64,000 nt of DNA from contig NZ_JBBHKA010000001.1 of assembly GCF_037572775.1 (NCBI RefSeq), forward strand, positions 1,674,001 to 1,738,000. Reading direction: 5' to 3'. Each line of letters begins with the position of its first letter. Within the stretch, counting starts at the first letter, position 1. This document shows positions 4,015 to 38,202 of the stretch, one piece after another. The position numbers and the translations under genes are program-made. Below the pieces are notes generated by a model. The model saw only the letters and a program-made list of their open reading frames with translations, had not been told where the DNA came from and made no database searches. The stretch comes from Ramlibacter sp. PS4R-6 (GTDB lineage: Bacteria; Pseudomonadota; Gammaproteobacteria; Burkholderiales; Burkholderiaceae_C).

Positions 4015-4832
4015 AGTGCGCGCAGCGCGGCCAGCAGGTGCTGGCGGTACTCGGGGAAGGCGTGGATGTCGTTGTGCGCGGCGCCGGGCACCTTCACCAG
4101 CTGCGCATTCGGCAACACGGAAGCCAGCCGCTCGCTGTGGCGCAGCGGGATCAGCTCGTCGCGGTCGCCGTGGTACAGCACGATGGGCCCGTGGATGCCG
4201 GACGCGCGCCGCGCCGTCTCCAGCGGGTAGCGCAGCATCGCCGCGGGCACGAAGGGATAGATCTCCGACGCCAGCTCGCGGATGCTGCTGTACGGCGTGA
4301 CGAGCACCGTGAGGTCCGCAGGCCGGCCCTGCGCGGTGAGATCGGACGACAACTGCGCCGCCAGCGCGGTGCCGAGCGAGCGGCCGTAGATGACGACCTT
4401 CTTGCCGGCGAAGCGCGGGCCCAGCTGCTTCCACACCGCGGCCACGTCGGCGAGCAGCTGCTCCTCGCTTTCGATGCGGCCGGTGCTCTTGCCGTAGCCG
4501 CGGTAGTCGGGCATGACCAGGTCGAAGTTGGCCTCGCGGTAGAACGCCGTGTTGGTGAACCAGCCCGCCAGGTTGCCCGCGTTGCCGTGCAGGAAGAACA
4601 CCACGCCCTTCGGGTTGGGCAGCTGCAGGTGCAGCACCGACAGCCGCGCGCCGGGCACTTCCACGGTGAGCTCGTGCACGTCGGGCTCGGCGGCCAGCTT
4701 GTAGTCGGCCGCCAGCGGCGACGGGTAGAACAGCAGCTTTTCCTGCTGCGACCAGAGCAGCGCGAAGAAGCCCGCGGCGGCGACGGTGGCGAGGGCGAGG
4801 AACACGAGGAGCAAGCGAAGGGTGCGGTTCAT
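4011..4832 (-). CDS. Membrane-anchored alpha/beta hydrolase (BEM46/ABHD13-like)
   Basis: A 273-residue serine hydrolase of the alpha/beta fold. An N-terminal hydrophobic anchor (residues 6-27) suggests a periplasmic or membrane location. The oxyanion HGNAGN motif is at 82-87, the nucleophile elbow GRSLG places Ser152, GDRDE (about 222-226) supplies the acid, and AAHND supplies His253, so the triad looks intact. The family acts on unknown small esters or lipids. It runs convergently into tamB with a 4-nt overlap of stops. Its start overlaps the stop of the upstream gene (ATGA), so the two form an operon. Substrate cannot be told from sequence. Confidence 0.85.
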   Translation of the reverse strand: MNRTLRLLLVFLALATVAAAGFFALLWSQQEKLLFYPSPLAADYKLAAEPDVHELTVEVPGARLSVLHLQLPNPKGVVFFLHGNAGNLAGWFTNTAFYREANFDLVMPDYRGYGKSTGRIESEEQLLADVAAVWKQLGPRFAGKKVVIYGRSLGTALAAQLSSDLTAQGRPADLTVLVTPYSSIRELASEIYPFVPAAMLRYPLETARRASGIHGPIVLYHGDRDELIPLRHSERLASVLPNAQLVKVPGAAHNDIHAFPEYRQHLLAALRAL

Positions 4833-35535: not shown

Positions 35536-35611
35536 GACCCTATCGTCTAGAGGCCTAGGACATCACCCTTTCACGGTGAGTACCGGGGTTCGAATCCCCG
35601 TAGGGTCGCCA
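35536..35611 (+). tRNA. tRNA-Glu (anticodon TTC)
   Basis: A 76-nt tRNA with acceptor GACCCTA / TAGGGTC, anticodon loop CTTTCAC (anticodon TTC), T-arm GGGGTTCGAATCCCC and encoded CCA. It lies 45 nt after tRNA-Ala and is the substrate of the GltX encoded upstream. Confidence 0.95.
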
Positions 35612-35656
35612 GTTTTGCAGCACTGATCGCGCATGCGATGAACGTTGCACTACCTT

Positions 35657-35733
35657 GGAGTGGTAGTTCAGTTGGTTAGAATACCGGCCTGTCACGCCGG
35701 GGGTCGCGGGTTCGAGTCCCGTCCACTCCGCCA
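35657..35733 (+). tRNA. tRNA-Asp (anticodon GTC), island attachment site
   Basis: A 77-nt tRNA with acceptor GGAGTGG / CCACTCC, anticodon loop CTGTCAC (anticodon GTC), T-arm GCGGGTTCGAGTCCCGT and encoded CCA. Its 3' 48 nt are duplicated at 37964-38011, marking it as the insertion point of a small genomic island that rebuilt the intact tRNA. Confidence 0.96.
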
Positions 35734-35735
35734 AA
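35686..35735 (+). repeat. Left 50-bp direct repeat (attL core), within tRNA-Asp
   Basis: Identical over 50 bp to 37964-38013, running from GGCCTGTCACG (anticodon stem-loop) through the CCA end and the following AA. Sequence diverges on both sides of both copies. The core starts in the anticodon arm, a common crossover position for tRNA-targeting tyrosine integrases. Confidence 0.92.
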
Positions 35736-35748
35736 TTTTTCGAGAATT

Positions 35749-35790
35749 CAACGGGTTACAGTCGACAGGCTGTAGCCCGTTGTCCTTTTT
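35749..35790 (+). terminator. Rho-independent terminator after tRNA-Asp
   Basis: A 13-bp stem CAACGGGTTACAG / CTGTAGCCCGTTG (35749-35761 with 35770-35782, one G-T pair) with an 8-nt loop is followed by TCCTTTTT. It lies 15 bp beyond the tRNA-Asp end, inside the island, and so was probably brought in by it. Confidence 0.85.
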
Positions 35791-35820
35791 GGAATGTGAA
35801 TCGCGAAATTTGGAATCACG
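35791..35820 (+). repeat. Left-end subterminal repeats of the island
   Basis: GGAATGTGAATCGCGA (35791-35806) and TTTGGAATCACG (35809-35820) have near copies near the right end: GGAATTGTGAATCGTGA (37915-37931) and TTTGGAATTGGCG (37858-37870), in the same orientation. They may be integrase arm-type or accessory-factor binding sites. Confidence 0.35.
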
Positions 35821-35932
35821 CTGCCGGTTTTGCGCGCTTCTCAGGAGAGGGACTTCGTGTTCCCGGGAGTTGCCACTGCTCCGGTCGGTTCGTCGCAAGC
35901 GCCGACCTGCGCCGTGGACAACTGCGTAGACC

Positions 35933-36436
35933 CTAGCGACCGATCGTCGTGAGAAGTGTGTCGATCACGACGATGTTGCCGCGCGCCTTGTCCACGGCTT
36001 CCCGGGTCACGATCCTCTCTACGATCTTTTTGTTATGGGCGGGACCGCCGAACTCTTTTTCGAATCGCTTCTTATGCTCAGCGGTTGAACACTCTTTATG
36101 GAGACCCACAAGCCGAAGCAACATGCATTCCAGACATGGTTCGACTGCAATCAACACGATCCCTGCCTTCTCACCCCGTGCGCGGACGTCATCGTTCCAG
36201 TCTGTGTCGGTGTCAAAAAACGCCGCAGCAACATCGAAGGCGCCATTGGCGCGCTGATATCGGATGGCGTGGTCTACGACGTTCCCGGCACCCTTGCCAC
36301 CGGCAGATTGAACCCTGACGTTGCATCCCTTCCTGTCGGCCGTATAAAGCTCACGAATCCGCTTCAGGAAAATCTCTTCGGCGTCACCTTCTCCCATAAG
36401 GAGTGCCGTGGGCCTAACGATTCTCGCCTGCGCCAT
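35933..36436 (-). CDS. TOPRIM/RloB-like putative nuclease, partner of AAA ATPase
   Basis: A 167-residue protein with TOPRIM-like features. PTALLMGEGDAEEIFLKRIREL carries a glutamate (Glu16) after a hydrophobic strand, AAAFFDTDTDWNDD gives a D-x-D pair (Asp75, Asp77), and VEPCLECMLLRL resembles the N-P-C-x-E-x-W-L-L block of RloB (PF13707) proteins. In AbiL and RloAB pairs this component is the presumed effector. Its start overlaps the ATPase stop (ATGA), so it is translated after the ATPase. It is slightly shorter than usual RloB proteins (about 200). The assignment is from motif pattern only, and nuclease activity is an inference. Confidence 0.65.
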   Translation of the reverse strand: MAQARIVRPTALLMGEGDAEEIFLKRIRELYTADRKGCNVRVQSAGGKGAGNVVDHAIRYQRANGAFDVAAAFFDTDTDWNDDVRARGEKAGIVLIAVEPCLECMLLRLVGLHKECSTAEHKKRFEKEFGGPAHNKKIVERIVTREAVDKARGNIVVIDTLLTTIGR

Positions 36437-37617
36437 CAGAGTATCGGCACTGCGCCAAGCGCGCCGGCCATGTACTTGGCGCGGAGGTTGTCATCGGAGC
36501 GAAGACCTTCGATCGTGTCTCCTCGAAAACCGACGCTCTCACCTTCAACCTTCTCGAAGAAATGCACCTGTGATTTTTCGACCATCGTGAGCACTTCTGG
36601 CATGTGGCAAGTAAATAGCAATTGAGCGTTCTTTGGATTACTCACGGTCGATGCGAACATTCCCAAGATTGGTTCCAGCATATGTGGGTGCAAGTCGCCG
36701 TCTAGTTCATCGATCACGGCCAGCCCTCCAGTCTCGAGTATCGGCAAGAGTTTGGAGAGAAGAACAATCGCACCTTGTGTGCCCGCGGATTCCTGATGAA
36801 GCAACACGACCCCGGATTTGCCTTCGCGGGCAACATGCGTTACTAGCCCAAGCCAGAATTTTTCATCTCCCGGCATCTCTAGGGACTGAAATTTGACCCC
36901 GTTAATCCCCAAGTCCCACCCTTTCACCAAGTTGGTCATTGCGGTTGCGGCCGCCGGGTGACCTGCAAAGTATTCGGCAGCATCAGTGATGCCCGACACG
37001 TCAGAGCGATCGCGGCCGAAGGAATTGATATTCGTGTTCAGTTTGAGGCGACTTGTAAGGGCCAACGCGAGCGGGACGTTGTACTGTGCTGCAGTAGCAA
37101 GCAACGAGGCGTTGGGGCGGACTTTCTCGGCTTCTGTTTGTGCCAAGCCAAATCCGTCTTGGTGGACGACATACGCGTCGTCTGAAGCAGGGCTTCTTTC
37201 AAAAACCATTACGAATGGGCCGTTCGTACGCGCTTTCCTATGCAACGACTCGCGCAGAACTCGTTTCTTCGTCGCTGTCAGTTCATAGCGCCAGAGAACA
37301 CCGTCGGCATCTTCCCCAATAACTTCGAATTGGCTTGGATCGGAAACGTGGGCAAAGTGCGGCGTAAACGGCAGCTCCTGGTCCGGTTTGTAGTGGAACG
37401 AGTCCTTCACAAACGAGGTAACGAAAACGAGAGCTTTGAGGGCCGCCGTTTTACCAGCAGCATTCGCCCCCATGAAGGCACTAATCAAATTCAGCCGATC
37501 CCCAGAGCGCCCAGTGGTCTGGAACTTCTTTTCGTAGCCTCGGTGCGAAGTGACTAGAGAAACTTCGCACTTTTCAGCAAACGAATAGAGGTTCGTGAAT
37601 GAGTATGAGTGGAGCAT
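36436..37617 (-). CDS. AAA/ABC-type ATPase of a putative defence pair (AbiLi/RloA-like)
   Basis: A 393-residue ATPase of the AAA_15/AAA_21 (OLD/RloA-like) class. MLHSYSFTNLYSFAEKCEVSL is the usual beta-strand opening. Walker A is GANAAGKT (50-57), the ABC-like signature is ESAGTQ (276-281), Walker B is LAVIDELD with Asp303/Glu304, and a switch His338 lies in LLFTCHMPE. These head domains usually lack a long coiled coil in this subgroup, as here. Start 37617 is preferred because it opens this motif; an upstream ATG at 37794 would add 59 residues of non-conserved sequence. It heads a two-gene operon with the TOPRIM-like gene. Confidence 0.8.
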   Translation of the reverse strand: MLHSYSFTNLYSFAEKCEVSLVTSHRGYEKKFQTTGRSGDRLNLISAFMGANAAGKTAALKALVFVTSFVKDSFHYKPDQELPFTPHFAHVSDPSQFEVIGEDADGVLWRYELTATKKRVLRESLHRKARTNGPFVMVFERSPASDDAYVVHQDGFGLAQTEAEKVRPNASLLATAAQYNVPLALALTSRLKLNTNINSFGRDRSDVSGITDAAEYFAGHPAAATAMTNLVKGWDLGINGVKFQSLEMPGDEKFWLGLVTHVAREGKSGVVLLHQESAGTQGAIVLLSKLLPILETGGLAVIDELDGDLHPHMLEPILGMFASTVSNPKNAQLLFTCHMPEVLTMVEKSQVHFFEKVEGESVGFRGDTIEGLRSDDNLRAKYMAGALGAVPIL

Positions 37618-37963
37618 GGAACCTATCTTGTGGGGCAATTCCCTTTTGCAACCCCATTTTGCCCTCAAAATCTCCGCATTGGAACAAAAAACTCGGTTAA
37701 TCGTGTTAGTGTGTGCTGACATTGTGCGGGGCGTCGTCGCGAGCTCTGGCGGTGACTGGACGGGAACGGGCCAGCGGTCGGAGTCAAAGGCCACTTTCGT
37801 AGTACCCCAAACAACCAGCTGTTGAGCAGCAGGCCAGCCGAAACGCCGGTATGCAGCTTTGGAATTGGCGTAAATGCGCTAGCAGCCACGAGGGAGCGCA
37901 ATGAACCGATCTTCGGAATTGTGAATCGTGACTTCACCCGCACCGGTGCTTGCATCTAGCGCG

Positions 37964-38013
37964 GGCCTGTCACGCCGGGGGTCGCGGGTTCGAGTCCCGT
38001 CCACTCCGCCAAA
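37964..38013 (+). repeat. Right 50-bp direct repeat (attR), tRNA-Asp 3' fragment
   Basis: Exact copy of 35686-35735: the tRNA-Asp anticodon arm 3' part, T-arm, acceptor 3' strand and CCA. The 5' half of a tRNA is absent (preceded by TGCATCTAGCGC), so this is a remnant and not a functional tRNA. Confidence 0.92.
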
Positions 38014-38019
38014 GGATTG

Positions 38020-38055
38020 AAGCCCTTGCTATCGAATCGGTAGCAAGGGCTTTTT
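38020..38055 (+). terminator. Rho-independent terminator, original end of the tRNA operon
   Basis: A perfect 12-bp stem AAGCCCTTGCTA / TAGCAAGGGCTT (38020-38031 with 38041-38052) is followed by TTTTT. It sits 7 bp after the attR tRNA fragment, so it was probably the native terminator of gltX-tRNA transcription before the island inserted. Confidence 0.9.
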
Positions 38056-38202
38056 GTTGGGGCACGCGCGCCCGCCACGCTGTGTCTGCACGGGACGACA
38101 TCCCCGCGGGCATTTGCGCGCCGCCTTGCGGCCTCGTCTCCTAAGCGCGCAAGCGCACCGCGTGCTTAGTCTTCGCTCTTCGTCATCAAGGAGATCGAAC
38201 GA

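What the first reader, a model, noticed from the sequence alone, without database searches (positions are those of the whole stretch)
35686..38013. Cargo-only 2.3-kb island at tRNA-Asp bounded by 50-bp direct repeats
Seen directly: a complete tRNA-Asp gene and, 2.2 kb later, an exact 50-bp copy of its 3' half; between them is a two-gene operon and no integrase. Known: integrases of the tyrosine family insert at tRNA 3' ends and duplicate the 3' part. Inferred: a non-autonomous element that depends on an integrase in trans, comparable to the smallest cargo islands reported at tRNA genes. Such minimal islands are rarely recognised because automated tools look for integrases.
Basis: partly seen in the sequence, partly recalled or inferred. 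Interest (0 to 1): 0.9.

Follow-up and report, generated by a model that had tools for sequence, protein, structure and literature searches.

The report
Integrase-stripped tRNA island carrying phage defence
A 2.3-kb piece of DNA beside an aspartate tRNA gene has the integration ends of a family of much larger inserted elements, some of them phages, but has lost their integrase and keeps only a predicted two-gene anti-phage system; a similar 1.8-kb element with toxin-antitoxin-like genes lies at the same site in another bacterium.

Summary
In detail: tRNA-Asp 35657-35733, an exact 50-bp copy of its 3' half at 37964-38013, two genes between, no integrase gene. The genes are AbiL-like (AbiLi ATPase, AbiLii/RloB-like). 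TTTGGAAT repeats lie at +35 to +79 after the tRNA and near -107 and -54 before the displaced copy; the window has them at +55/+76 and -108/-54. The relatives' integrase is predicted to fold like full-length lambda Int; 11 of 13 members have no match to Pfam's integrase model. Of it the window keeps eight codons and the stop. So this is an integrase-deleted derivative that still has its core and all four arm sites. No cognate integrase was found in the genome; movement in trans is possible but unproven, and relatives with broken integrases favour erosion in place. A second minimal element (1,757 bp, Gp49/HTH pair) lies at the same site in Pusillimonas minor. New variant of a known kind (cis-mobilizable element / decayed prophage).

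The parts
35657..35733 (+). tRNA-Asp (GTC), complete; its 3' half is the attL core
   Evidence: ARAGORN; only full-length match in the genome
35686..35735 (+). left copy of the 50-bp direct repeat (attL core), from the anticodon stem-loop to two bases past CCA
35749..35782 (+). terminator-like hairpin after the tRNA, in the stretch homologous to the left ends of G006 and G336
   Evidence: terminator-like sites in the region are not more frequent than in shuffles, 3 against 3.3
35788..35795 (+). left arm-type repeat L1 (TTTGGAAT), +55 from the tRNA end
35809..35816 (+). left arm-type repeat L2 (TTTGGAAT), +76
35816..35842 (-). remnant of the relatives' integrase gene: last eight codons (seven residues identical to G006) and stop
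   Evidence: too short to be significant as protein, E 9.5; supported by DNA homology of the whole left end
35933..36436 (-). abiLii-like / RloB-like gene, 167 aa
   Evidence: PADLOC AbiLii 43 bits; Pfam RloB 26.6 bits, under its 31.5-bit cut-off
36436..37617 (-). abiLi-like AAA_21 ATPase gene, 393 aa from this start (the mechanical ORF begins at 37794)
   Evidence: PADLOC AbiLi 208.5 bits, next AriA 82.1 bits; Pfam AAA_21 75.7 bits
37858..37865 (+). right arm-type repeat R1 (TTTGGAAT), -108 from the core
37912..37919 (+). right arm-type repeat R2 (TTCGGAAT, one change), -54 from the core
37964..38013 (+). displaced 50-bp copy of the tRNA 3' half (attR core)

Best explanation
An integrase-deleted derivative of a larger element, prophage or genomic island, of one integrase family. 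Such elements carry a lambda-like tyrosine integrase (predicted arm-binding N-terminal domain and catalytic domain). It recombines their attP with the anticodon-loop region of tRNA-Asp, restoring the tRNA on the left and leaving a copy of its 3' half on the right (shown by comparison; crossover place inferred from where the repeat begins). In this lineage deletions removed everything except the attachment apparatus (core, two left and two right arm sites), the last eight codons and stop of the integrase gene, and an AbiL-like operon (shown). The operon probably acts by abortive infection, the AbiLi ATPase sensing infection and setting AbiLii free as toxin (inferred from the family). The remnant is now stranded because no cognate integrase was found in the genome, but with both att sites kept it could in principle be excised or carried along by an incoming element of the same family (inferred). 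Whether it shrank before or after arrival is undecided; erosion in place is favoured.
For: Left end against G006: score 114, best of 1000 shuffles 26; against G336: 66, best 30. Arms: window +55/+76 and -108/-54; G336 +56/+77 and -107/-54; G017 +56/+75 and -107/-54. Of 16 IMG/VR loci, chosen for the -54 arm, 15 also have the arm at -106 or -107, and 9 have the integrase within about 3 kb after the core. Elements of 67.9, 50.7, 37.4, 39.5 and 41.4 kb are bounded by a complete tRNA and a partial copy. Controls: the motif follows tRNA-Asp in 5 of 48 genus loci, four of which keep integrase or part of it; it precedes 0 of 55 complete tRNA-Asp copies. All exact TTTGGAAT in the 64-kb window (3 of 3) lie at the element ends. 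Integrase model: full-length lambda Int is the best PDB match, E 4.4e-11.
Against: Apart from the arms the right end resembles relatives only weakly (26, 21 and 22; 1, 17 and 14 of 1000 shuffles reach the value). The motif is not more frequent in the window than chance: the case rests on position. What kind of parent it had is open: G336 and G074 have phage tail genes, but the 67.9-kb element of G017 shows hydantoinase, dehydrogenase and KfrA_N genes and no phage structural gene among the proteins sampled. No relative carries this AbiL pair: the closest AbiLi in 399 family genomes is 49% identical, and L034-L051 have no paired arms (2 of 18 have one lone copy). No genome of the same species was at hand, so no literal empty site was seen.
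Confidence: 0.88

Rival explanations
1. Erosion in place only: a full prophage or island integrated here and was whittled down, the defence genes surviving because they pay; the remnant never moved as a unit.
For: Broken integrases of the family at the same site in the same genus: G006 (only the C-terminal ~200 residues; stops follow up to the contig end), G025 (internal deletion), G056 (last 23 residues), window (eight codons). No cognate integrase found in the genome.
Against: Core 50 of 50 and arms 31 of 32 bases are intact although nothing should preserve them once the integrase is gone; recent erosion would explain this too.
Confidence: 0.6
2. MITE-like hitchhiker: the 2.3-kb unit arrived as such and is moved in trans by integrases of incoming elements of this family.
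For: Complete arm set and exact core without integrase; a second minimal element with other two-gene cargo at the same site (L181); where both ends lie on one contig sizes are 1.8 and 2.3 kb against 37.4-67.9 kb, n=7.
Against: Only two cases found; no close copy of AbiLi in 399 family genomes; integrase codons inside point to deletion; no integrase in the genome to move it.
Confidence: 0.25
3. Tandem tRNA duplication with later decay of the second gene.
For: Whole Ala-Glu-Asp or Glu-Asp blocks are duplicated in 7 genus loci.
Against: Those copies are whole genes 269-383 bp apart; here only the 3' half is copied, with arm repeats and DNA of other composition.
Confidence: 0.01
4. The repeat came with DNA acquired by homologous recombination and marks no integrase event.
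For: tRNA-Asp 3' halves are conserved, so homologous exchange is conceivable.
Against: Does not explain four arm repeats at family positions or the left-end homology.
Confidence: 0.03

Closest known systems
CIME, cis-mobilizable element (PMC5704250, passages seen)
   Same: Has lost integration and transfer genes and kept attL and attR; an incoming element may integrate beside it.
   Different: Defined there as decayed ICEs or IMEs; here two relatives with the same ends have phage tail genes and one is a metabolic island; only 2.3 kb; no accretion seen.
Grounded (defective) prophage (PMC6379469, passages seen; the general idea recalled)
   Same: Integrated element that lost its recombinase while other genes stay.
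   Different: All four arm sites and an exact core are still recognisable and only a two-gene operon is left; prophage parentage is not certain.
MITEs and CALINs as hitcher elements (PMC11389934, passages seen)
   Same: Non-autonomous; keep the sites of a recombinase encoded elsewhere; thought to arise by gene deletion.
   Different: MITEs have transposase ends and no genes, CALINs integron attC sites; here arm-type and core sites of a lambda-like integrase.
AbiL (abiLi/abiLii) abortive-infection system
   Same: Both components side by side.
   Different: RloB score under the Pfam cut-off; closest AbiLi 49% identical; activity untested. AriA of PARIS is the next PADLOC match for the ATPase (82.1 bits).

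Membership tests
Cis-mobilizable element (CIME) | retains attL and attR | tested here: met
   exact 50-bp repeats and arm sites
Cis-mobilizable element (CIME) | has lost integration and transfer genes | tested here: met
   two genes between the repeats, neither an integrase nor a transfer gene by Pfam and PADLOC
Cis-mobilizable element (CIME) | derived from an ICE or IME | tested here: inconclusive
   G336 and G074 have phage tail genes, G017 metabolic and KfrA_N genes; conjugation genes not searched for
Cis-mobilizable element (CIME) | mobilised in cis after accretion | not testable with these tools
   no tandem at this locus
Elements of this lambda-like integrase family at tRNA-Asp | core = 3' half of tRNA-Asp from the anticodon loop | tested here: met
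Elements of this lambda-like integrase family at tRNA-Asp | TTTGGAAT arms on both sides at family distances | tested here: met
   one arm has one change and R1 lies one base further out than in the relatives
Elements of this lambda-like integrase family at tRNA-Asp | integrase gene in the element | tested here: not met
   only eight codons and stop; hence a derivative, not an autonomous member
AbiL | AbiLi ATPase next to AbiLii | tested here: met
   PADLOC 208.5 and 43 bits
AbiL | abortive-infection phenotype | not testable with these tools
   needs an experiment
MITE | terminal inverted repeats of a transposase, no genes | tested here: not met
   direct repeats at the ends and two genes
Phage satellite (PICI or P4 type) | own integrase plus regulatory or packaging genes | tested here: not met
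   two genes only

The most novel reading that the evidence does not exclude
A class of minimal, integrase-less hitchers: complete lambda-type arm sets around two-gene defence or toxin-antitoxin cargo, moved in trans by the integrase of incoming phages or islands that use the same tRNA-Asp, so that a phage may deliver anti-phage genes. Finders that require an integrase cannot see them, and most of their would-be helper integrases escape the Pfam integrase model.
Probability: 0.22. Interest if true: 0.85.

Novelty: new variant of a known kind. Interest (0 to 1): 0.55.

Why it matters
It shows in sequence how an integrated element can be reduced to its attachment site and one useful operon, here a predicted defence system, and that such remnants can be recognised by arm-site geometry when no integrase gene is left. 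That gives a way to look for the origin of lone defence and toxin-antitoxin pairs, and makes it testable whether such remnants are dead or can still be moved. It also points to a tyrosine-integrase family that Pfam's PF00589 model mostly misses.

Tried and rejected
Synteny of the downstream glycine-zipper gene as a route to empty sites: none of 29 relative loci has tRNA-Asp within about 1.5 kb, although in G058 (L123) such a gene lies 1.9 kb after tRNA-Asp, in the opposite orientation. Tandem tRNA duplication: rejected on geometry. AbiL relatives as sister islands: 18 of 18 loci L034-L051 lack paired arms, and the three with a tRNA gene (L044, L045, L047) show no copy of its 3' end in the locus. 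Element DNA in plasmids: no match. AbiLi in IMG/VR: no confirmed relative. TTCGGAAT form of the right end in IMG/VR: 0 matches. Order-level search: 2 of 399 genomes, the window's and G683, which is the genome of L187 by its coordinates. L176 and L183 look like chance or masked matches and were not taken as family members. PF00589 alone cannot exclude a cognate integrase, since only 2 of 13 family members match it at E up to 1, with the C-terminal 189 residues of the G006 integrase, was relied on. An integrase fragment in the Pusillimonas element: best tblastn match E 0.009, so left as possible only.

Full report
What is there. The window holds gltX, then tRNA-Ala, -Glu and -Asp. The 3' half of tRNA-Asp with two bases beyond CCA recurs exactly 2,278 bp further on (50 of 50 bases). 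Between lie two minus-strand ORFs that share one base at 36436. PADLOC calls them AbiLi (208.5 bits; next AriA, 82.1) and AbiLii (43 bits); Pfam gives AAA_21 (75.7 bits, over the cut-off) and RloB (26.6, under it); NCBIfam has nothing over a cut-off. G+C is 54.7% against 68.2%. PF00589 finds two recombinases in the 3.84-Mb genome; from their ORFs and neighbours I take them for XerD and XerC, by recall.

The same site in relatives. The gltX-tRNA locus matched in 54 of 59 genus genomes, own genome included. I fetched regions and could orient 50 of 52 by their tRNA-Asp; no AbiL gene lies in what was fetched. What follows tRNA-Asp varies greatly. In G006 it resembles the window and runs into the 3' end of a minus-strand integrase gene; G017 and G025 have related integrases. 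The window keeps the last eight codons and stop, 35816-35842. As protein this is too short to be significant (E 9.5), but the DNA of the left end is clearly homologous (114; best of 1000 shuffles 26).

Larger relatives. G017 has a partial tRNA copy 67.9 kb away. A search for the right end (TTYGGAAT, 35-62 bases, tRNA half) hit 5 of 399 family genomes: the window's, G447, G336, G074, G416. G336, whose contig length is that of L173 (Hydrogenophaga pseudoflava), and G074 have elements of 50.7 and 37.4 kb. Scans gave 16 loci in genome contigs and 16 in IMG/VR; 9 of these 16 IMG/VR contigs are 35-51 kb, and in 9 of 16 loci the integrase follows the core within about 3 kb, as in an attP. Of ten proteins sampled, G336 showed tape-measure and baseplate families, G074 tape-measure-like and DarB-like ones, the two IMG/VR contigs an unknown and an RNA-binding family, and four had no match. 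The G017 element is different: the proteins sampled are hydantoinases, dehydrogenase, FAD oxidoreductase, FAA hydrolase, a histidine-kinase domain and KfrA_N, with no phage structural family. So the integrase family serves phages and at least one non-phage-like island, and the window's parent may have been either.

Attachment-site anatomy. TTTGGAAT repeats flank the core. After the tRNA end: window 55, 76; G336 56, 77; G006 56, 77; G017 56, 75; G416 57, 79; G074 35, 56; G447 one at 60; G025 and G056 one at 57; G020 one at 60. Before the core: window 108, 54; G336, G017 107, 54; G074, G447, G416 106, 54. The -54 arm was in the search pattern, so it is not independent except in G017; the outer arm is: it is at -106 or -107 in 15 of 16 IMG/VR loci, and GGAAT lies at -101 to -104 in 13 of 16 genome-contig loci (three of these loci are G336, G416 and G447 again). 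After the core, 11 of 16 IMG/VR loci have one or two arms and 5 have none. Controls: the motif follows tRNA-Asp in 5 of 48 genus loci (two more were too short), four of which keep integrase or part of it; it precedes 0 of 55 complete tRNA-Asp copies; a reversed motif follows in 1 of 48. The number of motif copies in the window is not above chance, and the sequence between the right arms is only weakly conserved.

The integrase. Thirteen distinct intact members share R216, K239, R320, H341 and Y351 (numbering of L171; their catalytic roles by recall). The AlphaFold2 model has mean pLDDT 81.1 and pTM 0.54 and begins with three strands and a helix; full-length lambda integrase is the best PDB match, E 4.4e-11. 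PF00589 matches 2 of 13 members at E up to 1 (best 9.2e-5), PHROG integrase family phrog_1 6 of 13, NCBIfam 0 of 2 tried. In named phages 17 records match, under 27% identical in the 12 rows shown. In the window's genome there are two matches, E 0.04 (overlapping the attR region) and 0.09.

A second minimal element. Pusillimonas minor YC-7-48 (L181) has the same tRNA cluster and a copy of the Asp 3' part 1,757 bp away, right arms at -105/-53, and a Gp49-family and an HTH_37 gene, which look like a toxin-antitoxin pair. No left arm matches the motif; its left end is instead homologous to the stretch just right of the L185 attR (89; best of 300 shuffles 27), which has TTCCAAA repeats, the motif inverted. 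An integrase fragment inside is only weakly indicated (E 0.009). Where both ends lie on one contig the sizes are 1.8, 2.3, 37.4, 39.5, 41.4, 50.7 and 67.9 kb, n=7; the other loci could not be sized.

How it came about. In the genus the integrase at this site is broken in G006 (C-terminal ~200 residues, then stops up to the contig end), G025 (internal deletion) and G056 (last 23 residues). This favours loss in place, as in a cis-mobilizable element or decayed prophage. On the other side the sites are intact (31 of 32 arm bases, 50 of 50 core bases), so an incoming integrase could still act on them. Recent erosion and arrival as a unit cannot be told apart here: the closest full-length match to the locus is 82% identical.

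Cargo. In passages seen of PMC3985639, AbiLii of Fusobacterium nucleatum was toxic in E. coli and the lactococcal AbiL genes were not. Sensing by AbiLi and toxicity of AbiLii are inferred here. No sigma-70-like promoter was found in 35600-38150 (0 against 1.2 in shuffles).

Literature. Searches on cis-mobilizable elements, integrase-less or non-autonomous islands, satellites, integrase in trans, prophage remnants and AbiL led to CIMEs, MITEs/CALINs and grounded prophages as the closest ideas (passages), and to tRNA fragments as known traces of integration (PMC9897764, passages). In those listings and passages I saw no minimal element like this described; most subscription papers are not in the library. 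TIGER/Islander would pass over both elements, by its integrase rule and, for the 1.76-kb one, its length rule.

Verdict. Observation confirmed; interpretation partly supported: made by an integrase and now without one, yes; moved in trans, unproven.

Noticed in passing
L181 (Pusillimonas minor YC-7-48), tRNA-Asp 4088-4164 and the 1.76 kb beside it: Second minimal integrase-less element at tRNA-Asp, with a Gp49/HTH_37 pair and conserved right arms.
   Followed up: yes
L172, L124 and L153 (G017): A 67.9-kb element with the same integrase family and arms carries metabolic and KfrA_N genes rather than phage genes in the parts sampled.
   Followed up: partly
L127 (G023, after tRNA-Asp) and L154 (G023 contig C94): Another island type seems to use the same tRNA-Asp 3' half, with TGTCCCC repeats near both ends.
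   Followed up: partly
L100, L105, L107, L108, L111, L113, L114 (G008, G001, G014, G007, G016, G004, G039): Whole Ala-Glu-Asp (in G007 Glu-Asp) tRNA blocks duplicated in tandem.
   Followed up: no
alignment A1 (13 integrases): Tyrosine-integrase family mostly missed by Pfam PF00589 (2 of 13 match at E up to 1), although its model resembles full-length lambda Int.
   Followed up: partly
L185 (Alcaligenaceae bacterium CGII-64), right of its attR: The stretch outside the 41-kb element is homologous to the left end of the Pusillimonas mini-element and holds integrase- and toxin-like fragments: perhaps the scar of a tandem element.
   Followed up: partly
L147 (G056) and L138 (G020), just after tRNA-Asp: Arm motif with only 23 integrase residues (G056) or none found (G020): possible scars of lost elements.
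   Followed up: partly
L164:4086-12284 (G074 element): 2,732-aa ORF with similarity to DarB-like antirestriction proteins among its matches.
   Followed up: no
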